64,000 nt of DNA, from NCBI RefSeq assembly GCF_022385335.1, contig NZ_CP092431.1, positions 9,424,001-9,488,000 on the forward strand, read 5' to 3'. This stretch comes from Streptomyces deccanensis. Its GTDB lineage: Bacteria > Actinomycetota > Actinomycetes > Streptomycetales > Streptomycetaceae. Shown piece by piece: positions 23,128 through 34,652 of the stretch. Under the pieces are notes generated by a model. That model saw only the letters and a program-made list of their open reading frames with translations. It had not been told where the DNA came from and ran no database searches. Each line of letters starts with the position of its first letter. Position 1 is the first letter of the stretch. A program made the position numbers and the translations under genes.

Positions 23128-25038
23128 TTACTTCCTCCGCAGGCGCACCGACACCCCGTGCGCCGTGAAGACCTGCTCGGCCGTCCAGCCGTCGACGGCC
23201 ACGGAGACCTTCGAGAACCGGCCCTGCAGGGACCGCGCCCCGATCACCGCGACCGTGCTGCCGGACCGCGGCGCCTGCTTGGCGTCGAAGCGGACCACCA
23301 GCTCGCTGCCCCGCTCCAGGACCGCCCGCCCGTCGACCACGAGGGCCGCGTCGTCGCCCCGGTCCAGCGTCACGTCGAGGACACCGGCCTGCGCGTAGCC
23401 GCCGCGCACCCGGACGGTGCGGTCGCCGACGGCCAGCGTGCCGCCCTTCACCCGGACGTCACCGCGGCCGAACGCCTCCTTCGAGCCCGCCGCGAGGACA
23501 CCGGCCTCCACGACCGTGCCGCCCGTGTACCGGTTGGCGCCGGACAGCGTGAGCGTGCCGCTGCCCCGCTTGACGAGGCGGCCCGAGCCGTCGAGGTCGT
23601 TGCGCCAGGTGTCGGCCGCGTGGAAGCCGCCGAGGGAGGCGTCCAGCGTGACCGTGACATCCGAGTCGAGGGCGCCGTAACCGTCCGCAGCCGCGAACAG
23701 GTTGAGCCGGCCCCACTGCTCCCAGCCGTCCAGCAGCACATAGCCCGACGGCAGCGCGGTCGTGCGCAGCACCTCGCGGCGCTGCGCCGCGTCGAGGTAG
23801 GGCAGACGCGTCTCCAGCAGGACCTCGGCGCCCTTCGGCACGGTCAGGTCCTGGGACTTTCCGCGCCGGGTGAGCACGTACGTCAGCTTCGGCTCGACCA
23901 GGCGGGCGTTGGCCTGGCGGTCGGCGTACGGGTCGGTGTCCGTTCCCGCAGAGTGCGCGTAGGCGAACAGCGTGTCGGCCGTTGTGCCCGTCTTCGCCTG
24001 GAAGTACTCGGCAGCCTGCTTGCGCGCGGCGGCCTTGAGCTCGGCGTTCTTCGGGTCGGCGAGCGCGGCGGCGGCCAGCGCGGTGGCCATGACCCGGCCG
24101 CCGAGGACGTCGAGCGCGGAGTGCATGCCCGAGACGATCCTGTCGTGGCTCGCTTCGAAGGCGCGGGTCACCATCTCCTGGAAGCGCTCCGGGACGGCGT
24201 ACGCGTAGGCCAGGGCCGCCAGGTGGAGGGCGTTGGTGTGGCCGCTCGGGAAGCCGCCGTCCTCGGCGGGGTTCTCGCCCCGCTGGCGCAGCAGCTGCGG
24301 GACGACGATCACGTCGGAGTCGTACACCGGAAACCCGAACGCGTCGATCCTGCCGGTGTCGACGACCTCGCTGTTCTCGTTCATCCGCCAGGGGCGCGGG
24401 TACTGGTACGAGAACTTGGAGGGGTTGCCCGACGCGAACGGCCCGCGCACGGTGTTGACGAGCTCGGCCACCTTCCCGAGCGCGGAGCTGGTCGAGCCGG
24501 CGCCGTTCGCGGATCCGGCGGGAGCGTCGGCGGGGACGGAGTCGCTGATCTTGCCCGCCGGGGTGCCCTCCGGGGCGGAGGTGATCGCCGTGACCGCCAT
24601 GGCGCCGGCCTTGTACAGCTCCGCGAGCGGGCCGAGGCCGGTGATCACCGAGTAGCTCTGGTGCTGCCGGTCGGTGATGAACGCCTGGCGTGCCTGCGCC
24701 TCGGTGCGCCGGGAGGTGACACGCGCGCAGTAGCGCATGTTGGCCCGCAGGATGTCCGGCAGCAGCGGGGTGCCGGTGTTCCAGGCGTCGCCGGTCTTCC
24801 AGATCTCGGCGAAGCCGCCGAGGGCGCGGACCACGGCGTTGGTCTCGGGGGTGAGGTTCGCCGTGGTGTTGGTGGTGTAGTCGTCGACGAACGCGGCGAA
24901 CGCGGTGGCGGCCTTCGCCTCGGGGGCCTGCCAGAGGTTCGCGAGGGTCGGAGCGGCGATCAGGCCGGCCGAGACGCCGAGGGAGTTCCTGAGGAAGACA
25001 CGGCGGTTGAGCGTGTGGTGCCCGGCAGATGACGGCAT
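23128..25038 (-). CDS. Tat-exported PAP2 phosphatase with autotransporter-type beta repeats
   Basis: This 636-residue protein has a Tat signal (NRRVFLRNSLGVSAG). The PAP2/haloperoxidase core at about residues 45-330 carries the three phosphatase motifs KFSYQYPRPW, GGFPSGHTNA and SHDRIVSGMHSALDVLGGR. The C-terminal 200 residues are beta-rich with an autotransporter-associated repeat signature, GSGTLTLSGANRYTGGTVVE, followed by strands to SVRLRRK. It likely acts on an extracellular phosphate ester. The pairing with a repeat type best known in Gram-negative autotransporters is odd; there is no beta-barrel, so the repeats probably serve as a solenoid for binding. It is a single-gene unit. Confidence 0.85.
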   Translation of the reverse strand: MPSSAGHHTLNRRVFLRNSLGVSAGLIAAPTLANLWQAPEAKAATAFAAFVDDYTTNTTANLTPETNAVVRALGGFAEIWKTGDAWNTGTPLLPDILRANMRYCARVTSRRTEAQARQAFITDRQHQSYSVITGLGPLAELYKAGAMAVTAITSAPEGTPAGKISDSVPADAPAGSANGAGSTSSALGKVAELVNTVRGPFASGNPSKFSYQYPRPWRMNENSEVVDTGRIDAFGFPVYDSDVIVVPQLLRQRGENPAEDGGFPSGHTNALHLAALAYAYAVPERFQEMVTRAFEASHDRIVSGMHSALDVLGGRVMATALAAAALADPKNAELKAAARKQAAEYFQAKTGTTADTLFAYAHSAGTDTDPYADRQANARLVEPKLTYVLTRRGKSQDLTVPKGAEVLLETRLPYLDAAQRREVLRTTALPSGYVLLDGWEQWGRLNLFAAADGYGALDSDVTVTLDASLGGFHAADTWRNDLDGSGRLVKRGSGTLTLSGANRYTGGTVVEAGVLAAGSKEAFGRGDVRVKGGTLAVGDRTVRVRGGYAQAGVLDVTLDRGDDAALVVDGRAVLERGSELVVRFDAKQAPRSGSTVAVIGARSLQGRFSKVSVAVDGWTAEQVFTAHGVSVRLRRK

Positions 25039-25134: not shown

Positions 25135-26049
25135 TCAGCGCGTGACCGGTCGGAGGAGAGTACGTGAGAGTGCCAACGCCCCTTCGACCGGCGGCACTTG
25201 GAGCACATGCGGTCGCGCGGACGGTACAGCCTCGGCGAGCGCTTCGGCGAATGCCGCGTACAGGGCGGGCCGGGAGCGGATCGTCCCGCCGGCCACCACC
25301 ACGTCGGCCACGGGGACTTCGCGGGCGGCGAGCCGCGCCACGAGCGAGGCGAGCGCGCGGCCCCCTTCGCCGATCACCCGGTGGGCGAGGGCGGAGCCCT
25401 CCTCGGCGGCCTCGAAGACGGCGGGCGCGTGCCGGCCCCAGTCGGCGGACAGGGCCGTGGCGGACTCCAGGGCCCCGCCGAGAGCCGGGACCTCGCTCAC
25501 GCCGAAGGCGGCGACGAGCCGGTCGGCGAGGGCGTCGGGGGCTTCGCCGCGGTCGTGCGCGGCCCAGACGGCGCGGCACGCCTCCCGGACCAGACCGGCG
25601 GCGCCGCCCTCGTCGCCGAGGACCGCGCCCCAGCCGCCGACCTGCACCGACGTGCCGTCGGCGGACCGGCCGACGGCCACCGAACCGGTGCCCGCGACCA
25701 GCCCCACGCCCTGGTCGAAACCGGCGGCGGGCACCAGCAGTTCGGCGTCGCCCACCACCAGGCACGGCACCTGAAGCCGTTCCTGGAGGGCGAGACGTAT
25801 GCCCTCGCACTGCCGGGGCGTCTCACAGGCATGGGCGCCGACGGCCACGGCGGACGGAGGGGTGTGCGCGGGCAGCACCTCCCCGACCAGCGCGGCCAGC
25901 CATGAGGCGGCGGACGCCGGGTCGTGCGGTCGCCAGCCACGGCTGGGACGGATGTGGTCGGCGACCGGGTCCGTCCCCGTGACAGCACGGAGATGGGTCT
26001 TGGTGCCGCCCACGTCGATACCGACCGCGACGGGCCTGGGGTCCTGCAC
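25135..26049 (-). CDS. BadF/BadG/BcrA/BcrD-type kinase (N-acetylglucosamine kinase-like)
   Basis: This 304-residue ASKHA-fold ATPase starts with the phosphate-1 motif VAVGIDVGGTKTHLRAV, followed by the phosphate-2 and connector region GLVAGTGSVAVGR and GWGAVLGDEGGAAGLVREACRAV, the hallmark of eukaryote-like N-acetylglucosamine kinases and BadF proteins. The adenosine motif is VVVAGGTIRSRPALY. It probably phosphorylates an imported amino sugar or related sugar. The start is GTG at 26049. The gene is divergent from a ROK regulator and sits beside an ABC importer operon, so it is the likely intracellular kinase for the imported product (inference). Confidence 0.87.
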   Translation of the reverse strand: MQDPRPVAVGIDVGGTKTHLRAVTGTDPVADHIRPSRGWRPHDPASAASWLAALVGEVLPAHTPPSAVAVGAHACETPRQCEGIRLALQERLQVPCLVVGDAELLVPAAGFDQGVGLVAGTGSVAVGRSADGTSVQVGGWGAVLGDEGGAAGLVREACRAVWAAHDRGEAPDALADRLVAAFGVSEVPALGGALESATALSADWGRHAPAVFEAAEEGSALAHRVIGEGGRALASLVARLAAREVPVADVVVAGGTIRSRPALYAAFAEALAEAVPSARPHVLQVPPVEGALALSRTLLRPVTR

Positions 26050-26190
26050 GTGAGGCTTCTTTCGTCGTTGCGTTGCGATGGGCGCAGCGACGGCTGGGCG
26101 AAACCGTGCCTGGACACACAGAGTCTGTGGGGGGTGCTAGTGAGGCCCCGGGACGGGCCTCTGCGGTGCGGTAGGCGAGTACCGCTTGAC

Positions 26191-26214
26191 TTCGTTAGGA
26201 AATTAACTAACGAA
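26191..26214. promoter_or_regulatory. Candidate ROK operator, 8-bp inverted repeat
   Basis: TTCGTTAG (26191-26198) and CTAACGAA (26207-26214) are perfect complements around an 8-base AT-rich spacer. It lies in the 243-base divergent region between the kinase and ROK genes, 79 bases before the ROK start, in a local AT-rich dip. AT-rich palindromes of this kind are typical for ROK regulators. Confidence 0.65.
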
Positions 26215-26292
26215 TAAGGGTGCGTCAAGGGTTATGACGCCGGATCCCGCACGACCGTGCGGACGGAAGATCGCGGTACGACTGGGGAGAGC

Positions 26293-27414
26293 ATGCAACT
26301 GAGCGAGAGCGCCCGCGCTGTCTTCGCCGTACTGGCCGCGTCGAGCACCGCCACCCGCCCCCAACTGGCGACCGGGGCGCGTCTTTCCAAGCCGACCGTC
26401 TCCACCGCCGTGGCCGAGCTGGAGGCGGCCGGTCTCGCCGCCCGCTCCGGCACCCTCAACGGAGGAACCGGCAGGTCAGCGGCCGTATACGATCTCGGGA
26501 TCGCCGCCGGCGCGGTCCTCGCCGTCGACCTCGGCCCCAGCGTCACCCGGGTGCGGGTGTGCGCCCTGGACGGCACGCTGCTCGCCGAGGGCACCGGTCT
26601 GCGGGCGGACACCGTCGACGTCGTCGCGGAGGCCCTGGCGCGGCTGTCGCCCGGGGCGCCGCTGCGCGCCATCGTCGTCGCCGTCGGCGACGTCACCGTC
26701 CAGGGCCGGGAGGGCAGGTCCGTACGGCCCGCCACCGCCAAGGCGGGCCCCATCTTCGACGCCCTGACCGTGGCCCTCCCGCCCGGAGTGCCCGTCCACG
26801 TCGAGAACAACGTGAACTGCGCCGCCCTGGCCGAGCTGCACGAGGGCGCCGCCCGGGGCCGGGACACCTTCGGCTATCTGCGGATCGGCGTCGGCATCGG
26901 TCTCGGTGTGGTCATCGGCGGCCAGGTGCTGCGCGGCGCGAACGGCGCCGCCGGTGAGGTGGCCCGGCTGCCCTACCCGTGGGACGCGGACCGCGAACCC
27001 CGCCACGAGGGCCTGGAGGCGCACATAGGGGCGGGCTCCCTGCTGCGGCGGGCGGCGGACGCCTGGCGGGGCGTGGACGACCCCTGCCCCGACACCGTCG
27101 ACGGGCTGTTCGCGCTGGCCGACGCGGGGCACGCCACGGCGCGCGCCGTCGTCGCCCGGCACGCCGCCGACGTGGGCAGACTCGCCGTCGCGGCCGCCGC
27201 GGTCCTGGACCCCGGCCTGATCGTGCTGGGCGGTGCCGTGGGCTCCAAGCCCCTGCTGCTGCCCGGCGTACGGGCCGAGCTGGCCCGGCTGAGCTGGCCC
27301 ACCGAGGTCGTGAGCAGCGCCCTCGGCGACAGCGGCACCGTCGTGGGGGCCAGTCGGCTGGCCGTGGCCCGGGGAATCCAAACCGTGACCGGAGGTGCGG
27401 CGGTGAAGCATTGA
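26293..27414 (+). CDS. ROK family transcriptional regulator (glycan locus)
   Basis: The Met at 26293 (after GGGGAG) gives 373 residues. The winged helix domain covers residues 1-60 (SESARAVFAVLAASSTATRPQL and LSKPTVSTAVAELEAAGLAA). The ROK domain follows, with VLAVDLGPSVTRVRV, HVENNVNCAALAELHEGAARG and GIGLGVVIGG. As in the ROK at 8470, the zinc-binding Cys cluster is missing. It probably represses the downstream lipoprotein-permease-enzyme operon and the divergent BadF-type kinase through the palindrome at 26191, released by a sugar. The gene is followed by a 277-base region before the transporter. Confidence 0.88.
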   Translation: MQLSESARAVFAVLAASSTATRPQLATGARLSKPTVSTAVAELEAAGLAARSGTLNGGTGRSAAVYDLGIAAGAVLAVDLGPSVTRVRVCALDGTLLAEGTGLRADTVDVVAEALARLSPGAPLRAIVVAVGDVTVQGREGRSVRPATAKAGPIFDALTVALPPGVPVHVENNVNCAALAELHEGAARGRDTFGYLRIGVGIGLGVVIGGQVLRGANGAAGEVARLPYPWDADREPRHEGLEAHIGAGSLLRRAADAWRGVDDPCPDTVDGLFALADAGHATARAVVARHAADVGRLAVAAAAVLDPGLIVLGGAVGSKPLLLPGVRAELARLSWPTEVVSSALGDSGTVVGASRLAVARGIQTVTGGAAVKH

Positions 27415-27446
27415 CGGACTCCACCGGCATCTGCCAATGTCCGGAC

Positions 27447-27454
27447 AAGCGCTT
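27447..27454. promoter_or_regulatory. AAGCGCTT palindrome upstream of the sugar importer
   Basis: AAGCGCTT, extendable to ACAAGCGCTTTCT with one mismatch, lies 238 bases before the lipoprotein start. It resembles LacI/CcpA-type half-site cores. The remainder of 27415-27691 shows no gene. Confidence 0.35.
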
Positions 27455-27691
27455 TCTAAGTCGGCCGGGACGCCGGCTTGGGGCGAGCCTCCCGCCCGTA
27501 CTCGACGTACGGCCACCGCACGAGGGCGTGCCCGTGCGGTGACGGCCAGACGGCTGGGGATCCCGCCCCGCGTGGACGACGCGGCCGGGCGAGGCCGTGC
27601 CCCCCGGAAAGCAGCCCTCCTGCACAATGCACCCGTGCCGCCTCGGTCGGCGCGCCGTGCTCTGTCCCCTACCGAAAAAAAGGGATCGAAG

Positions 27692-29017
27692 ATGACCACT
27701 GTGGGTGTGCGGCGCTCAAGCCGACTCGGCCGCGGCGGTATGCGCCGCCTGGTTCCCCTCGCTGCCGGTGTCTCGGCGGCCGCCCTGCTGCTCTCCGCCT
27801 GCGGAGGAGGGGAATCCGACTCGGGCGGTACCTCCAAGTCGCTGACGTTCTGGATCTCCACGGTTCCGGGGCAGGACGCGGGCTGGAAGAAGATGGTGGC
27901 GCAGTACGAGAAGGAAACCGGCGTCAAGGTCAAGCTGGTCAACATCCCCTACGACGGCTACGCGACGAAGCTGCGCAACTCCGCGCAGGCGAACTCGCTG
28001 CCCGACGTGGCGGCCGTGCCGGCGCTCGACCCGATCTGGTCGAACAAGCTGATCGACCTCAGCGACATCGCCAACAACAAGACGAACAAGATCAACGCCA
28101 ACTTCGTCGCCAAGGACTCCTCCGGGAAGGTGCTGTCCATCCCCTCGGACGTCACCGCGTCCGGCATGTTCATCAACAAGTCCCTGTTCGAGAAGGCCGG
28201 CGTCGACTACCCGACCTCGCCCGACAAGACCTGGACCTGGGACGAGTTCATCAAGGCGGCGAACGAGGTCCGGGAGAAGACCGACGCCAAGTACTCCCTG
28301 ACCTTCGACCAGTCGCCGTCCCGGCTGCGCGCCATGGTCTACGAGATGGGCGGCAAGTACGTCCACGCCGACGACTCCGGCAAGTTCTCGGTGGACGCGG
28401 CGACCAAGAAGGCCGTGAAGACCTTCGTCGGCTGGAACGACGACAAGACCATGCCGAAGTCGGTGTGGACCAGCGGCGCCGACCCGTCCGCCATGTTCCA
28501 GAGCGGTGACGTCGTCGCCTACTGGTCCGGCGTGTGGCAGGTCGCCGCCTACTCGGAGAGCATCACCAAGTTCGAGTGGGCGAGCGTCCCGACCCCCGCC
28601 CAGCCGGTGCAGGCCAGTGACGTCAACAGCGGTGGCATGACGGTCGGCTTCAACAACAACGCCGACGCGGCCGCCGCCGCGAAGAAGTTCCTGTCCTGGC
28701 TGTACGAGCCCGACCACTACAAGACGCTGTGCGAGACGTCCGGCTTCCTGCCGGTCGAGAGCGGCCTGAACCCGAAGTACCCCTTCAAGTCCGAGGCGGC
28801 GCAGGCGGCGTTCAAGCTCTACAACGAGTCCATCCCGCTCTACGACCCCATCTCCGGCTACTTCAACAGCGCGCAGACGGCCTGGGTGCTGAAGGGCAAG
28901 AGCCTCGCCGACGACCCGACCAAGGCGGAGCTCGGCAAGGCGATCAACGGAGAGCAGTCGTCCGACAAGGCCCTGCAGAACATCGTCGACGGCTACAACA
29001 CGCAGGTCGGCGGCTGA
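27692..29017 (+). CDS. ABC sugar-binding lipoprotein
   Basis: This 441-residue solute-binding protein follows an AGGGA ribosome site by 7 bases. The signal peptide ends in the lipobox LLLSACGGG, with the lipidated Cys, so it is anchored outside the membrane. The mature part is of the carbohydrate uptake transporter-1 type: FWISTVPGQDAGWKKMVAQYEK, PDVAAVPALDPIW, and MFQSGDVVAYWSGVW. Lysine-rich loops and aromatic clusters fit oligosaccharide capture. It is the first gene of the importer operon, with a large hairpin after its stop, which probably raises its level relative to the permeases. Confidence 0.92.
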   Translation: MTTVGVRRSSRLGRGGMRRLVPLAAGVSAAALLLSACGGGESDSGGTSKSLTFWISTVPGQDAGWKKMVAQYEKETGVKVKLVNIPYDGYATKLRNSAQANSLPDVAAVPALDPIWSNKLIDLSDIANNKTNKINANFVAKDSSGKVLSIPSDVTASGMFINKSLFEKAGVDYPTSPDKTWTWDEFIKAANEVREKTDAKYSLTFDQSPSRLRAMVYEMGGKYVHADDSGKFSVDAATKKAVKTFVGWNDDKTMPKSVWTSGADPSAMFQSGDVVAYWSGVWQVAAYSESITKFEWASVPTPAQPVQASDVNSGGMTVGFNNNADAAAAAKKFLSWLYEPDHYKTLCETSGFLPVESGLNPKYPFKSEAAQAAFKLYNESIPLYDPISGYFNSAQTAWVLKGKSLADDPTKAELGKAINGEQSSDKALQNIVDGYNTQVGG

Positions 29018-29032
29018 GCGTAGGCAGGCAGT

Positions 29033-29066
29033 CCCGGGCGGCGGTGTCCCGACCCCGCCGCCCGGG
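29033..29066 (+). terminator. Intra-operon hairpin after the lipoprotein gene
   Basis: Perfect 12-base arms CCCGGGCGGCGG (29033-29044) and CCGCCGCCCGGG (29055-29066) with a 10-base loop, 15 bases after the stop. Probably a partial terminator or mRNA stabiliser that gives excess binding protein. Confidence 0.6.
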
Positions 29067-29146
29067 CCCGCGGACCCCACCCACGTGATGCCGGGCTCAT
29101 GACCTGAGCCTCCAGGAACCCATTCCACCAGCACGGAGTCAGGAAG

Positions 29147-30067
29147 ATGACCAAACGCGCCCCGGACGCTTCGGACGTGTCCGTGAGCCCGCCCAGGAGA
29201 CGAAGCAAGTACACCCTCGCACCGCTCGTCCTCATCTCGGGCAACGTCGTGCTCTTCGCGCTGTTCTTCGTCTGGCCGGCGGTGATCGGGCTCGTCTACT
29301 CCTTCACGAACTACACGGGCGTGGGGGCGTTCCAGTTCGTCGGACTGGACAACTACAGCAAGCTGTTCGGGGACTCCGCCTTCTACGACGCGATGAGCCG
29401 CACGCTGCTGTACACCGTGCTCTTCGTCCCGCTGAACTTCGTGCTCTCGCTGCTCATCGCCAACGTGCTGGTGAGCAAGCACGCCAAGGGCGCGTCGGTC
29501 GCCCGCATCTTCTTCTTCATCCCGTGGCTGCTGTCGCCCATCATCGTGGGTGTCCTGTGGCGGTGGCTGTTCGGTGAGAACTTCGGACTGGTCAACTACT
29601 TCATCGAGAAGGTCGGCGGGAGCGCCGTTCCCTGGCAGTCGAACGCGGACCTGTCACTGCTCGTGGTCGTGGTCGCGGCGGCCTGGGCCTGGACGGGCTT
29701 CTCGATGCTGCTGTTCATCGCGGCGATCAAGAACGTCCCGACGTCGTACTACGAGGCCGCCGCGCTCGACGGCGCCGGTCCCTGGCGCCAGTTCTTCAGC
29801 ATCACCCTGCCGAGCATCGCCCCCACGTCCTTCATCGTCATCCTGCTCAACACGATCCACGCGATGAAGGAATACGCGGTGTTCGCCTCCCTCAACAACG
29901 GCGGACCCGGAACGTCGAACAACCTGATGGTCCAGTACATCTACCAGACGGGGTTCAAGTCGGGCCAGATCGGCTACGCGAGCGCCGCGTCGTTCGTGCT
30001 CATGCTCATCCTGATGGCCGTCGCGATCATCCAGATGATGGTGAACCGGCGGGTGGAGAACCGATGA
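29147..30067 (+). CDS. ABC sugar transporter permease 1
   Basis: This 306-residue permease of the MalF type has six predicted membrane helices beginning VLISGNVVLFALFFVWPAVI. The EAA loop that contacts the ATPase reads YYEAAALDGAGPWRQFFSIT near residue 210. The usual ligand-side sequence SFTNYTG is present near residue 50. Its stop overlaps the next permease start (ATGA). No ATPase gene is in the cluster, as is usual for Streptomyces CUT1 importers served by a shared MsiK-type ATPase (known for such systems, inferred here). Confidence 0.92.
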   Translation: MTKRAPDASDVSVSPPRRRSKYTLAPLVLISGNVVLFALFFVWPAVIGLVYSFTNYTGVGAFQFVGLDNYSKLFGDSAFYDAMSRTLLYTVLFVPLNFVLSLLIANVLVSKHAKGASVARIFFFIPWLLSPIIVGVLWRWLFGENFGLVNYFIEKVGGSAVPWQSNADLSLLVVVVAAAWAWTGFSMLLFIAAIKNVPTSYYEAAALDGAGPWRQFFSITLPSIAPTSFIVILLNTIHAMKEYAVFASLNNGGPGTSNNLMVQYIYQTGFKSGQIGYASAASFVLMLILMAVAIIQMMVNRRVENR

Positions 30068-30966
30068 CAACCACAGACATGCCTCGCAAGGTCGACGCCC
30101 GGCCCGCACGACCTGTCCGCAAGAAGCGGTCCGGCGGCTCGGCCACCGGCGGTCTCCGGCGCGCGATCGCCCCGACGACCCTGCTGTGGGTCCTCGCGGC
30201 CCTCTACGGGGTGCCGGTGCTGTGGTTCGTCCTCAGCTCCCTCAAACCGGCGGGAGACCTGTTCTCCCTTCCGCTGACGGTGTTCCCCGAGAATCCCACC
30301 GTGTCGGGCTACAAGGAGGCGTGGGCGAGCGCCAACTTCTCCGAGTACTTCATCAACACGACCATCGTGTGTGTGATCGCGACGATCCTCACGGTGGGAG
30401 TCAGCTGCTGCACCGGGTACGCGCTGGCCAAGTACGACAACAAGTGGCTCAAGGCGTTCTTCCTCTGCATCCTGGCCACCACGATGCTGCCGGCCGAGGT
30501 CATGCTCGCCCCGCTGTTCCTGGTGGTCCGCGACCTCGGCTTCTACAACTCGCTGTCCGGCATCATCCTCCCGGCCCTGCTCACCGCGACCGGCTGCTTC
30601 ATGTTCCGCCAGTTCTTCCTGACGGTCCCCGACGAACTCATCGAGGCCGCCCGCATCGACGGCGCCAAAGAGCTGTCGATCTTCCTGCGGATCATGGTGC
30701 CGCTCTCCCGGCCCATCATGCTGACGCTCGCCATCCTGTCGTTCCAGTGGAGGTGGAACGACTACATCTGGCCGCTGCTGATGCTGAACGACCCGGAGAA
30801 GTTCACGGTGCAGATCGGCATCCAGAGCCTCGTCGGCGCGCAGAACATCAACTGGTCGGTGCTGCTGGGCGGTTCGGTCATCTCCATGGTCCCGCTGATC
30901 GTCGTCTTCCTGGTGTTCCAGAAGTACGTCATGAACGCCGACATCAACGCCGGACTGAAGGACTGA
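30064..30966 (+). CDS. ABC sugar transporter permease 2
   Basis: This 300-residue MalG-type permease has helices at LLWVLAALYGVPVLWFVLSSL and beyond, and the EAA loop IEAARIDGAKELSIFLRIMV near residue 200. A basic N-terminal tail precedes the first helix. It is translationally coupled to the first permease by a 4-base overlap, and its stop lies 2 bases before the TTG start of the next gene, so the transporter and the two downstream proteins form one operon. Confidence 0.92.
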   Translation: MTTTDMPRKVDARPARPVRKKRSGGSATGGLRRAIAPTTLLWVLAALYGVPVLWFVLSSLKPAGDLFSLPLTVFPENPTVSGYKEAWASANFSEYFINTTIVCVIATILTVGVSCCTGYALAKYDNKWLKAFFLCILATTMLPAEVMLAPLFLVVRDLGFYNSLSGIILPALLTATGCFMFRQFFLTVPDELIEAARIDGAKELSIFLRIMVPLSRPIMLTLAILSFQWRWNDYIWPLLMLNDPEKFTVQIGIQSLVGAQNINWSVLLGGSVISMVPLIVVFLVFQKYVMNADINAGLKD

Positions 30967-30968
30967 CC

Positions 30969-32687
30969 TTGCCCTCCGCGCTCGACCACGAGTTCGTCCG
31001 CGCGGCGGCCCGCGCCGCCGACCGGTCGGCCGTCCCCCTGGCGGCCGACCCGGACGCGGAACCCGCCGGTGTGCCGCACCGTGGTCTGGCGCGGCGGGTG
31101 AAGACCCTGGTCGCGGCATACCGTTCCCCGGACTCGGAACTGCACGGCGGCGAGCGGGCCGTCGCCGCCGCGCTGACCCACCTGCGCGCCCTGCGGGCCG
31201 TGCAGACGCCCTCCGGCCTCTTCGCGGGTGGCGACAACGTGCAGTCACCGCCGGACTCCGCGTTCACCGTCAACGACGTGTGCGACGCGTACGTCCTCGC
31301 CGCCGACGGGGGACCGGAACTGCGCGAGGTCACAGCCGCGCTCGCCGACATCGCCGGCGCCGCCACCGGCAGCCTCCTGACCGGCGGCGTGCACACCCCG
31401 AACCACCGCTGGGAACTGAGCGCGGCCCTCGCCCGGCTGCACCGGTCCTTCCCCGACGACCGACTCCTCGACCGCGTCCAGGAGTGGCTCGCCGAGGGCG
31501 TCGACATCGACGCGGACGGCCTGTACTCGGAACGCAGCGCCGTCTACGCGTCCATCGTGACCAACCCGGCGCTGCTCCTGCTGGCCGAGACGCTCGGCCG
31601 GACCGACCTGTCGGCGGCCGTCGAACGCAACCTCGCCACCACCCTGGACCTGATCCGACCGGACGGCACGGTGGAGACCGTCCACTCGCGACGGCAGGAC
31701 CAGAAGCTCACGTTCGCCCTGTGGCCCTACCTGCCGCACTACCGGCTCCTCGCGATCCGCACCGGCCGGGGCGACTTCGCCCGGGCGGTACGGCTGGCGG
31801 CCGCCGGCGGCATCGACGACCCCGACCTGCTCGCCCAGACCCTCCTCACCCCGGACCTGAGCCACGAACTGCCGGCCGAGGACGCGGAGACGCTTCCGCG
31901 CGCGAGGTACCTCACCACCGCTCGCCTCGCCACGCACGCCTCGGCCACCGCGCACACCGTGGTGTACGGCGGCTCCGACGTGCCCGAGCACCGGCGCATC
32001 CGCTCGGGTCTCGCCTGCAACCCGACCTTCCTGCGCCTGTTCGCCGGGGACGCCGTCCTCGACGCGGTCCGCCTCTCGCGCGGCTTCTTCGACCTGGGCC
32101 CGTTCCGCGCCGCCGCCATGGAACGGCTCGCCGACCACCGGTACCGGCTCACCCAGAGCCTCACCACCGCCTACTACCAGCCGCTCCCGAAGGACCACAG
32201 GCGCGACGACGGCGCCTACCGCCTGGTGGACGAGGGCCGCTTCTCCGCGGCGATGGCCTTCCCGGACCGTCCTGAGGACGAGGTCACCCACACCACCCGG
32301 GTCGAGGTCGACCTGCGGGAGGACGGGGCCGACCTGCGGATCGACATCAGCGGCCCACCGGTGCCCTGGGCCCTCGAACTGACCTTCCGGCCGGGCGGCG
32401 AGCCCCAGGGCGCCGTACCGCTCGGCGACGGACGCTGGTGCCTGACCACCGGACCCATGACCTACCGGGCCGGCGACGACGAGATCCGGGTCGAGGCCCG
32501 TGTCGAGGCGGGCGAGCCGCTCGCCGGGCCGGACCGGAGCGACATACTGCGGTACGACCCGGGCCAGGACTACACCGTGACCGGCGGCACCGACGCGACG
32601 ACCGGGAACCGCGTCCACCTCGGCGGCCACGGCCCGCACACACTGACCCTCGCCCTGCGCGCCCGCCGCCCCGCACCCGTCGTCTGA
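30969..32687 (+). CDS. Unrecognised toroid-like protein, candidate polysaccharide lyase or hydrolase (first)
   Basis: The TTG at 30969 is chosen because AAGGA at 30958-30962 lies 6 bases before it, overlapping the permease end; no ATG or GTG fits. The 572-residue product has no signal peptide. Residues 1-400 look all-helical with repeated hairpins (VKTLVAAYRS, ALTHLRALRAVQ, VQEWLAEGVDI), as in alpha/alpha toroids, and the C-terminal part (about 415-572) is beta-rich (TTRVEVDLREDGADLRIDIS). Motifs TPNHRWELSAAL and DADGLYSERSAVY recall the Asn-His/Tyr catalytic patterns of heparinase II/III-like lyases and related hydrolases. It does not clearly match a known family. Context suggests cytoplasmic breakdown of the imported glycan. 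Confidence 0.7.
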   Translation: MPSALDHEFVRAAARAADRSAVPLAADPDAEPAGVPHRGLARRVKTLVAAYRSPDSELHGGERAVAAALTHLRALRAVQTPSGLFAGGDNVQSPPDSAFTVNDVCDAYVLAADGGPELREVTAALADIAGAATGSLLTGGVHTPNHRWELSAALARLHRSFPDDRLLDRVQEWLAEGVDIDADGLYSERSAVYASIVTNPALLLLAETLGRTDLSAAVERNLATTLDLIRPDGTVETVHSRRQDQKLTFALWPYLPHYRLLAIRTGRGDFARAVRLAAAGGIDDPDLLAQTLLTPDLSHELPAEDAETLPRARYLTTARLATHASATAHTVVYGGSDVPEHRRIRSGLACNPTFLRLFAGDAVLDAVRLSRGFFDLGPFRAAAMERLADHRYRLTQSLTTAYYQPLPKDHRRDDGAYRLVDEGRFSAAMAFPDRPEDEVTHTTRVEVDLREDGADLRIDISGPPVPWALELTFRPGGEPQGAVPLGDGRWCLTTGPMTYRAGDDEIRVEARVEAGEPLAGPDRSDILRYDPGQDYTVTGGTDATTGNRVHLGGHGPHTLTLALRARRPAPVV

Positions 32688-32735
32688 CCCGACGCACCAC
32701 GTCATGGCCACCCCAGGCATGAAGGACTGATCCCC

Positions 32736-34568
32736 GTGCACCTCCCACGCCAGCTCGGTTCGCTGCACGACCTGCCGGACACTCCGGAGGCGTACGACGC
32801 CGTGCTCGCCGACGTCACCGAGCAGGCCCTGGCCCGCCTCACACCCGAGGGCAACCTCGAACACCCCGACTGCGTCGACGACATCGGCGACACCTCTCTC
32901 GGCATCACCTCCCTGCTCGCCCTCGCCTGGCAGCGCACCAAGGACCCGCGTCTTCCGGAGGCGGTCGGCCGCAGCACGGACTTCCACCTCCGCGAGCGCG
33001 TCTACACGGACGACAACCCCGGATACCCCAACCTGCGGGTACGCGACTCCGGCTTCCCGTACGCCCGTTACACCCTCGCGCCCGGCGCCCACCCCATCGG
33101 CGACTGGCCGAGCACGGTCTGGGCGCTGCTCCAGGCCGTCAACCTGCTCGACCTGGCCGACGGCCTCCTCACCGACGAACAGACCGACGCCCTGCGGGAG
33201 ATGAGCCGCGGCTACTGGCGCTGGCTCACCGAGGCGACCTTCTTCAACCCGCAGGAGGCCGGCAACCAGGCCATCGGCTGCGTCGTCGGCGGCCTGATGC
33301 TGGCCCGCCACCTCCCGCCCGAGGACGCCCGACGGGTCCGCGAGCAGGCGATCGCCCTGTACGTCGACGAGATCCGCGCGCACCGGGTGCGCGACCGGGG
33401 CGCCCTCCTCCCGCCCGAGCACGGCGGTGCCTGGGACAACAACTACGGCCCGATCTCCCTGTCCTTTCTCGCCCAGGCCCACCGGGTCAGCGGCGAGCAG
33501 ATCTTCGCCGAGGACGGGGAGACGGTCGCCCGCTACCTCGACGCGCGCCTGACGGTCGGCGGCTTCGACCTCGGCGGCCCCCGCTACAGCGAGCAGCACT
33601 CCGGCTTCGAGTCCGTGCTCGGCCTGCGCTACTTCGGCCACCGCGTCGGCGCCGACCTCGGCCGCTACCGGGGCGACCTCCGCTGGGGCCGGCACGCGGT
33701 CAAGCCGGACGGCGGGGTCGACGGCCACTTCGCGTGGATGCTGGTCTGGCAGATCCAGGACACCACGCCCTGGCACCGCACCCCGTCCGCACGGCCCGTC
33801 CGGCACCAGCTGCGCGCCGGCCGGGTCTCCGTCGCCTTCGACTCGAAGATGACGCCCGCCCTGATCGAGACCGACGGGACGTACTTCCTCGCCGCCGCCG
33901 TCAACCGCCAGCACGGCTTCGGCCCGGTCGTCGACGGCTTCCTGCTCTGCCGCCCCATGGGCGAGACCCGCGTCCGGGACGTCCGGGCCGACGGCCTCAC
34001 CGCCAAGCTGGTCACCAAGCCCGTCGTCACCCGCGACCACGTCCTGCGGCACGTGCAGTCCCTGTACGTCACCGACGGCACCCGACTGTGGACCACGGTC
34101 GCCGTCGAACGCCTGCCCGGATCGCCGTACCTCCTCGCCGGACTGCCGTACGTGGCCGACGACGCCGAGGGCCTGCGCCGGATCGCCGACGCCGACGTGG
34201 CCTCCGCCGGCGACCTGTGGCTGACCCACCCGGCCGCCGAGGGCCCCGAGTTCTTCGACGCCCGCGCCGACACCACCCAGGAACTCGCCGCCTTCGCCCT
34301 CGCCGCCGACCCCCGCGGCTACGGAAACCCCGACGAGGGCTGGTCCCACCTGGTGGCCTCCACGGCCATCGAGGCCACGCCCGCGCCGGGAGCACCGGAC
34401 GACCTCGATGTCTTCGCCGTCCGCCACGGCGGCTCCGGCGAGGTCTTCGACCCCACGTTCGACCGCGTCGCGGAGGGGCTGAGGGTCCGCACGGAGGCGT
34501 TCACCGCCGTGATCGGTGACCCGGCGGGCGACGACCGGGGCGAACCGACCCTGACCCTGCGGCCCTGA
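32736..34568 (+). CDS. Unrecognised toroid-like protein, candidate polysaccharide lyase or hydrolase (second)
   Basis: The GTG at 32736 has AAGGA 9 bases upstream and gives 610 residues without a signal peptide. The N-terminal 340 residues are helical hairpins with conserved-looking clusters GDWPSTVWALLQAVNLLDLA, EAGNQAIGCVVGGLMLARHL and EHGGAWDNNYGPISLSF. PRYSEQHSGFESV has the same YSE-x-x-x-aromatic pattern as YSERSAVY in the preceding protein. The rest is beta-rich (VSVAFDSKMTPALIETDGTY). The overall layout matches helical toroid plus beta-sandwich carbohydrate enzymes, but no family can be assigned. It is 48 bases after the first enzyme and followed by a terminator. Confidence 0.7.
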   Translation: MHLPRQLGSLHDLPDTPEAYDAVLADVTEQALARLTPEGNLEHPDCVDDIGDTSLGITSLLALAWQRTKDPRLPEAVGRSTDFHLRERVYTDDNPGYPNLRVRDSGFPYARYTLAPGAHPIGDWPSTVWALLQAVNLLDLADGLLTDEQTDALREMSRGYWRWLTEATFFNPQEAGNQAIGCVVGGLMLARHLPPEDARRVREQAIALYVDEIRAHRVRDRGALLPPEHGGAWDNNYGPISLSFLAQAHRVSGEQIFAEDGETVARYLDARLTVGGFDLGGPRYSEQHSGFESVLGLRYFGHRVGADLGRYRGDLRWGRHAVKPDGGVDGHFAWMLVWQIQDTTPWHRTPSARPVRHQLRAGRVSVAFDSKMTPALIETDGTYFLAAAVNRQHGFGPVVDGFLLCRPMGETRVRDVRADGLTAKLVTKPVVTRDHVLRHVQSLYVTDGTRLWTTVAVERLPGSPYLLAGLPYVADDAEGLRRIADADVASAGDLWLTHPAAEGPEFFDARADTTQELAAFALAADPRGYGNPDEGWSHLVASTAIEATPAPGAPDDLDVFAVRHGGSGEVFDPTFDRVAEGLRVRTEAFTAVIGDPAGDDRGEPTLTLRP

Positions 34569-34602
34569 CCGCCCCCGGCCCGCCCACGGGCCGCACCAGC
34601 CG

Positions 34603-34634
34603 GCAGCCCGACGTTCCTGACGACGTCGGGCTGC
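34603..34634. terminator. Hairpin terminator ending the glycan operon
   Basis: Perfect 12-base arms GCAGCCCGACGT (34603-34614) and ACGTCGGGCTGC (34623-34634), loop of 8, followed by CTCATTT. It separates the operon from the convergent kinase gene. Confidence 0.75.
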
Positions 34635-34652
34635 CTCATTTCCGCCCCCTCC

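What the first reader, a model, noticed from the sequence alone, without database searches (positions are those of the whole stretch)
25135..34568. Candidate undescribed glycan-uptake and degradation locus
Seen: BadF-type kinase, divergent ROK regulator with an 8-bp palindrome, a sugar-binding lipoprotein, two permeases, then two large cytoplasmic-looking proteins coupled to the operon. Both unknowns have a helical N-terminal part and beta-rich C-terminal part and share a YSE-x-x-x-aromatic motif. Known: helical toroid plus beta-sandwich layouts occur in polysaccharide lyases and GH families, and Streptomyces importers of this type often borrow MsiK. Inferred: an imported oligosaccharide is cleaved inside the cell and phosphorylated by the BadF-type kinase, possibly an amino sugar or uronic acid product.
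Basis: partly seen in the sequence, partly recalled or inferred. Interest (0 to 1): 0.78.

Follow-up and report, generated by a model that had tools for sequence, protein, structure and literature searches.

The report
Modular sugar-import operon with orphan enzymes
A conserved Streptomyces operon appears to import an unknown sugar chain and break it down inside the cell; one of its two unnamed enzymes is a distant relative of heparin-cutting enzymes, the other matched nothing searched, and the operon's transporter and sugar-processing parts have been swapped between species.

Summary
The genes lie where stated. The 8-bp palindrome is exact, the only such site in the genome (3 mismatches allowed), and present in 94 of 95 KIN-ROK intergenic regions. 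The layout matches csnREFGHK (ROK repressor, ABC importer, GH4 hydrolase, kinase); a cluster of that layout also lies at 3.60 Mb. Here GH4 is replaced by two proteins without Pfam, NCBIfam or PDB sequence match. U1 (30969-32687) is, by profile comparison, a remote relative of heparinase II/III-type lyases, keeping the Asn and Tyr positions but no invariant C-terminal His. U2 (32736-34568) is an orphan seen only in Streptomyces; no structure could be predicted. Linkage is strong: all 53 of 246 Streptomyces genomes with a KIN orthologue carry U1 or U2. New: the operon is modular. A non-orthologous importer stands in 21 of 108 loci, without U1 in the stretch read; in four genomes kinase and repressor are replaced by a Gfo/Idh/MocA oxidoreductase and another ROK. 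A secreted acid phosphatase (23128-25038) adjoins the kinase in 93 of 108 loci. Best reading: import of a hexosamine- and probably uronate-containing oligosaccharide, lyase-type cleavage by U1, phosphorylation of a released sugar. The substrate is not established.

The parts
23128..25038 (-). Secreted (Tat-like N-terminus, read by eye) PAP2 acid-phosphatase-like protein with a PATR repeat; possibly downstream of the kinase in one transcript
   Evidence: PF01569 50.2 bits, PF12951; class A acid phosphatases among PDB matches; co-directional neighbour of KIN in 93 of 108 loci; 56% identical homologue beside SBP-P1-P2-GH38-U1 in another genus, L209
25135..26049 (-). KIN, BadF/N-acetylhexosamine-kinase-type sugar kinase
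   Evidence: PF01869; best PDB match 8zo3 MurNAc/GlcNAc kinase E 4.5e-13
26191..26214 (.). Operator-like palindrome TTCGTTAG-8-CTAACGAA between KIN and ROK
26293..27414 (+). ROK-family regulator with winged helix-turn-helix
   Evidence: PF00480 82 bits over its cut-off; MarR_2 E 2.5e-5, below its cut-off
27439..27460 (.). Second conserved element GTCCGGACAAGCGCTTTCTAAG upstream of the transporter genes
   Evidence: AAGCGCTT core in 77 of 77 type-A (window included) and 21 of 21 type-B loci; core at 27447-27454 is the only copy in the window
27692..29017 (+). SBP, sugar-binding lipoprotein (type A importer)
   Evidence: PF01547 125.7 bits; PDB sugar-binding proteins
29147..30067 (+). P1, permease
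   Evidence: PF00528
30064..30966 (+). P2, permease, overlaps P1 by 4 nt
   Evidence: PF00528
30969..32687 (+). U1, remote heparinase II/III-type toroid lyase relative; no signal peptide seen by eye; candidate residues N145, H142/H146, Y193
   Evidence: hhalign prob 73.6, P 2.9e-5; score 46.9 vs 100 shuffles max 29.6; these four residues invariant in 157 of 157 rows
32736..34568 (+). U2, orphan protein of unknown fold, seen only in Streptomyces
34602..34635 (.). Hairpin with 13-nt perfect arms just after U2, possible terminator

Best explanation
The locus is a csnREFGHK-like catabolic operon. A ROK repressor bound at the KIN-ROK palindrome is released by an imported sugar, derepressing KIN(-PAP2) and the ROK-SBP-P1-P2-U1-U2 transcript. 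A secreted phosphatase may first strip phosphate from the substrate outside. The type A importer brings in an oligosaccharide. U1 cleaves it in the cytoplasm by lyase-type (beta-elimination) chemistry at a uronate, U2 carries out a second step (unknown), and KIN phosphorylates a released sugar, most likely an N-acetylhexosamine or hexosamine. Shown: gene content, conserved order, single conserved operator-like site, remote kinship of U1 to toroid lyases, modular swapping. Inferred: lyase chemistry, the uronate, the amino sugar, the role of the phosphatase, and every regulatory step.
For: Same layout as the characterised csnREFGHK (passages of PMC6097792 and PMC5635096); a cluster of that layout is present in this genome at 3.60 Mb. 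All 53 genomes of 246 with a KIN orthologue (61% identity or more) carry U1 or U2; 52 of 61 genomes with U1 or U2 carry KIN (from; G415, whose U2 one search gives in two pieces of one open frame, is aligned 6-593 in one piece). U1 aligns to heparinase II/III-like proteins with NHRW, DGxYSERSxxY and PDGxV in register; its Asn-to-Tyr distance is 48, against 53-63 for the lyases with a catalytic Asn tabulated in PMC12088678 (passages). KIN nearest MurNAc/GlcNAc kinase. In L214 a KIN homologue stands beside a glucosamine-6-phosphate-isomerase-family gene, an MFS-SIS gene, ROK, SBP-P1-P2-U1 and GH95; in L213 a KIN homologue stands beside SBP-P1-P2-GH38-U1.
Against: No Pfam hit of any of 37 U1 rows to a lyase at E up to 10. 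Two of three heparinase subsets gave no signal to U1 (hepA P 0.44; hepB P 0.05, below its own shuffles' maximum of 30.1), nor did most of 27 single heparinases. No invariant His in the C-terminal half of U1, whereas PL12, PL15, PL17, PL21, PL35 and PL39 list one with a high residue number. In four genomes the kinase is replaced by an oxidoreductase, so phosphorylation by KIN is not obligatory. GH38 and GH95 neighbours in other genera point to mannose- or fucose-like residues, not uronate. U1 or U2 is absent in many loci. KIN-like proteins at 43-56% identity occur in three genomes without U1 or U2 (G207, G241, G302). No structure could be made.
Confidence: 0.5

Rival explanations
1. U1 and U2 are glycoside hydrolases (toroid type or new) that trim a mannose/fucose/hexosamine-rich oligosaccharide, such as N-glycan or fungal-wall fragments, with KIN phosphorylating free hexosamine.
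For: GH38 between P2 and U1 in three genomes of one other genus and GH95 after U1 in L214; hexosamine-kinase-like KIN; toroid domains also occur in hydrolases (recalled).
Against: The detectable kinship of U1 is to lyases, with the Asn and Tyr positions of the lyase mechanism invariant; no similarity to single GH95 or GH127 sequences.
Confidence: 0.25
2. A redox route: U1 acts on a sugar oxidised by a Gfo/Idh/MocA enzyme (3-keto glycoside), a functional counterpart of GH4 in the csn cluster.
For: Gfo/Idh/MocA replaces KIN in L149/L284, L181, L279, L280, and is 48-50% identical to one in 7 of 12 loci of the distant U1 subfamily; two Gfo/Idh/MocA genes, DUF6807 and cupin in the L072 operon.
Against: No match to that oxidoreductase at E 1e-10 in any KIN-bearing locus among 138 loci searched; it may serve only downstream metabolism.
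Confidence: 0.12
3. The locus recycles the cell's own wall or extracellular polymer instead of feeding on an external glycan.
For: KIN nearest MurNAc/GlcNAc kinase; two loci keep U2 beside the phosphatase without importer genes (L081, L171).
Against: Patchy presence (61 of 246 Streptomyces genomes with U1 or U2), swapped importers and decayed U2 look like accessory catabolism.
Confidence: 0.1

Closest known systems
csnREFGHK chitosan-oligosaccharide cluster of Streptomyces (CsnR ROK repressor)
   Same: ROK regulator, SBP and two permeases, intracellular sugar-cleaving enzyme, putative saccharide kinase; palindromic operator (passages; own-genome cluster of this layout)
   Different: GH4 replaced by U1 and U2; kinase divergently placed; secreted phosphatase; importer proteins only 24-30% identical to those of the 3.60 Mb cluster; other operator sequence; modules swapped
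Heparinase II/III-like toroid lyases (PF07940 proteins; PL12, PL15, PL17, PL21, PL35, PL39)
   Same: Local profile alignment of 144 columns with NH, ERSxxY and PDG motifs in register
   Different: Below Pfam detection; no signal peptide in the window's U1; no invariant C-terminal His; conserved SRRQDQ block, not seen aligned in the heparinases
Distant-U1 loci (L072 type: LacI, Gfo/Idh/MocA, DUF6807, cupin, SBP-P1-P2, U1 with Tat-like start)
   Same: U1 homologue 40-43% identical, with permease genes next to it in 11 of 12 loci
   Different: LacI instead of ROK and oxidoreductases instead of kinase in L072; no U2 or KIN match in the 12 loci at the limits

Membership tests
csnREFGHK-type cluster | ROK regulator leading an SBP-permease-permease set | tested here: met
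csnREFGHK-type cluster | GH4 hydrolase between permease and kinase | tested here: not met
   No GH4 in the locus; the two GH4 matches of the genome lie at 3.60 and 8.76 Mb
csnREFGHK-type cluster | Binding of chitosan oligomers | not testable with these tools
   needs protein
Heparinase II/III-like superfamily (for U1) | Detectable profile similarity over the toroid motif region | tested here: met
   prob 62-74, P 3e-5 to 7e-5, 46.9 against shuffle maximum 29.6; but two of three subsets negative
Heparinase II/III-like superfamily (for U1) | Pfam heparinase model score over cut-off | tested here: not met
   0 families for U1; no lyase family in any of 37 rows
Heparinase II/III-like superfamily (for U1) | Catalytic Asn and Tyr | tested here: met
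   N145 and Y193 lie in the aligned motifs and are invariant in 157 of 157 rows; roles not tested
Heparinase II/III-like superfamily (for U1) | Catalytic His | tested here: inconclusive
   no invariant His in the C-terminal half; H142 and H146 invariant in the N-terminal half
Heparinase II/III-like superfamily (for U2) | Detectable profile similarity | tested here: not met
   score 18.3, 100 shuffles reach 25.4
PL8/PL23-like lyase (for U2) | Asn-His-Tyr triad with PL8/PL23 spacing | tested here: inconclusive
   N177-H229-Y237 fits (52 and 8), but 4-5% of permutations also do and the test was post hoc
Any toroid family | (alpha/alpha) toroid plus beta-sandwich fold | not tested
   structure prediction unavailable

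The most novel reading that the evidence does not exclude
U2 founds a new glycan-active enzyme family restricted to Streptomyces, and with U1 (a new, cytoplasmic polysaccharide-lyase-like family) forms an intracellular pathway whose import and product-processing modules (kinase versus Gfo/Idh/MocA oxidoreductase) are exchanged as cassettes to follow changes of the glycan.
Probability: 0.35. Interest if true: 0.7.

Novelty: new variant of a known kind. Interest (0 to 1): 0.5.

Why it matters
It links two uncharacterised protein families to an importer, a repressor with a single clean operator-like site, and a kinase, so the natural substrate can be found by induction tests. U1 could widen the toroid-lyase superfamily to cytoplasmic enzymes of Streptomyces; U2 has no relative that could be found. 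The natural cassette swaps (importer A/B, kinase/oxidoreductase, U1/U2 present or lost) are a ready comparative experiment on which part reads which sugar.

Tried and rejected
No model, so no fold search was run.

U2 kinship: phmmer and hmmsearch against PDB, Pfam for 49 rows at E up to 10 (only chance-level matches), profile search of 394 class genomes (all matches at E up to 0.001 in the window's genus; the weak one of L275 lies in a 587-residue frame that reads like a glycosyltransferase by eye), heparinase profiles, and GH38, GH95, GH127, DUF6807 and PAP2 single sequences: nothing. PADLOC: nothing for U1 or U2. Viral contigs: no relative of U2. Plasmids: one, a 1.16 Mb replicon of S. chartreusis.

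U1 and U2 as relatives of each other: rejected at this sensitivity. Two registers for U2 against the lyase motif are possible (N177/Y237, or the YSE-x4-F block with Phe in place of Tyr); neither is significant.

A CsnR-box-like pattern was looked for in the two GH4 regions of the genome and not found, so the 3.60 Mb cluster is called csn-like by layout only.

Literature: searches returned no paper that, by its listing, describes this locus; a statement of absence is limited to these searches of the held library. Of papers I read passages only of PMC4856308, PMC5635096, PMC6097792 and PMC12088678; the rest I saw as listings.
Full report
What is there. The window is 9424001-9488000 of a single-contig 10.1 Mb genome, a Streptomyces by its relatives; among named U2 relatives the nearest include S. 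caniscabiei 93%, S. brasiliscabiei 92% and S. europaeiscabiei 90%. Reading outward from the palindrome at 26191-26214: to the left KIN (25135-26049, minus) and, 96 nt further and on the same strand, a secreted PAP2 phosphatase (23128-25038); to the right ROK, SBP, P1, P2, U1 and U2, followed by a hairpin with 13-nt arms at 34602-34635. No ABC ATPase over its cut-off is among the ten proteins scanned. P2 and U1 are 2 nt apart, U1 and U2 48 nt.

Is it conserved? In a sample of 246 Streptomyces genomes (the window's included), counted by hand from the listings: U1 orthologues (76% identity or more) in 43, full-length U2 in 48, KIN (61% or more) in 53. All 53 KIN genomes have U1 or U2: 52 by this count, and G415, whose U2 one search gives in two pieces of one open frame and one search aligns in one (6-593, 67%). 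Nine of 61 genomes with U1 or U2 have no KIN over the cut-off; two of these show KIN fragments (G343; G429). U1 and U2 occur together in 30, U1 without full-length U2 in 13, U2 without orthologous U1 in 18. One U1 copy in this count (G329) is split over contigs. Dropped from the counts: eleven genomes with a distant U1 (40-43%), one with a short weak U1 match (G387), seven with U2 in pieces (G415 among them), one with a weak U2 match (G345), and three with KIN-like proteins of 43-56% and no U1 or U2 (G207, G241, G302). In a phylum sample a single-sequence search with U1 found 3 of 198 genomes, all Streptomyces.

Architecture. Of 108 loci examined (L081-L188; 80 are the best of 168 by U2 similarity, 28 chosen by me from the survey; at least three genomes are present twice): 55 have the type A importer with U1 and U2 (one with partial U1), 13 the type A importer and U2 without U1, 21 a different importer (type B) with U2 and no U1 in the stretch read, 8 type A and U1 with U2 missing or in fragments, 2 type A with U1 and U2 but no KIN (L149, L181), 4 U2 without importer genes in the stretch (one of them partial), and 5 are cut by contig ends (contig ends). 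Type B permeases are 31-38% and SBPs 24-29% identical to type A in the eight loci. PAP2 stands next to KIN, co-directional, in 93 of the 108. The sampling favours U2, so these are not population frequencies.

Swapped modules. Type A and type B importers sit between the same ROK and U2. The core AAGCGCTT, mostly within GTCCGGACAAGCGCTTTC, lies within 330 nt after ROK in 77 of 77 type A (window included) and 21 of 21 type B loci, so part of the promoter region is constant while the importer changes. In L149 and L284 (apparently one genome), L181, L279 and L280 the operator core, ROK and KIN are not found; a Gfo/Idh/MocA oxidoreductase and another ROK (24-25% in three of them) stand in their place. 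That oxidoreductase is 48-50% identical to one in 7 of 12 distant-U1 loci.

U1. Some databases name members 'Heparinase' or 'Heparinase II/III-like'; I did not rely on that. Against 43 PF07940-containing proteins (50 read, 7 dropped by length) hhalign gives prob 73.6, P 2.9e-5; with gap columns removed prob 62.4, P 7.4e-5, score 46.9, against a maximum of 29.6 in 100 column shuffles. A first set of 27 gave prob 13.6, P 0.002, and of three subsets of it one was positive (prob 60, P 8.5e-5) and two were not. The alignment puts TPNHRW on the Asn-His motif, DGLYSERSAVY on DGxxxERSxxYH and PDGTV on PDGxV. One heparinase-like protein reads DGVIAERSAMY at this place (L247). H142, N145, H146, Y193, R241, R242, Q243 and D244 are invariant in 157 of 157 rows, S240 and Q245 in 156. 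No His of the C-terminal half is invariant. The table in PMC12088678 (passages) lists Tyr and His with, mostly, Asn as the catalytic residues of such lyases.

U2. Everything tried was negative (see tried and rejected). Named relatives seen are Streptomyces, plus one record titled 'Actinobacteria bacterium OV320'; of 488 homologues only the best 120 were listed. The alignments are shallow (66-94% identity), so profile methods have little power; this is absence of evidence.

What the neighbours say about the substrate. KIN: a MurNAc/GlcNAc kinase is the best solved match, 52.8 bits; NCBIfam NagK at 59 bits, far below its cut-off of 370. L214: KIN homologue (36%) next to a PF01182 isomerase/deaminase-family gene and an MFS-SIS gene. 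L208, L209, L213 (three of five genomes of one other genus): GH38 between P2 and U1, in L213 in two pieces, with SBP 38-41% and P2 62-64% identical to the window's. L209 also has the PAP2 protein, 56% identical, and L213 a KIN homologue (42-53% in two pieces); L208 shows neither in the stretch read. L210: inositol-catabolism-like genes one gene beyond U1 (PfkB, KduI/IolB, TPP enzyme). These hints disagree on one sugar; hexosamine plus uronate fits the window's own genes best, in my judgement.

How it compares. CsnREFGHK is the nearest described system: ROK repressor, importer, GH4, putative saccharide kinase (passages of PMC6097792 and PMC5635096). This genome has that layout at 3.60 Mb (ROK, SBP and permease matches, GH4, then a PF01869 match), so the window locus is a second system of the same plan and not that cluster itself.

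Verdict. Real, conserved, not named by the libraries searched, and a plausible source of one new lyase-like family and one orphan family. The chemistry and the substrate remain inferred.

Noticed in passing
L083-L086, L105-L108, L114, L117, L123, L127, L129, L147, L156, L170, L178, L180, L183, L184, L187: A non-orthologous importer (type B) stands between the same ROK and U2; none of these 21 loci shows U1 in the stretch read.
   Followed up: partly
L149/L284, L181, L279, L280: KIN, its ROK and the operator core are not found; a Gfo/Idh/MocA oxidoreductase and a different ROK gene stand in their place.
   Followed up: partly
L094-L101: U2 is missing or reduced to fragments while U1 and the importer are present.
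   Followed up: partly
window 23128-25038: PAP2 phosphatase carrying a PATR repeat, a type named for autotransporter passengers, in a Gram-positive; homologue in the U1 locus of another genus.
   Followed up: partly
window 27439-27460: Conserved element GTCCGGACAAGCGCTTTCTAAG upstream of the transporter; its AAGCGCTT core is in 98 of 98 loci examined, the window included; the binding protein is unknown.
   Followed up: partly
L069-L080: Distant U1 (about 40%) with permease genes next to it in 11 of 12 loci; in L072 and L077 with DUF6807 and Gfo/Idh/MocA genes, a possible separate catabolic system.
   Followed up: partly
L210 11489-18181: Inositol-catabolism-like genes one gene beyond a U1 homologue.
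   Followed up: no
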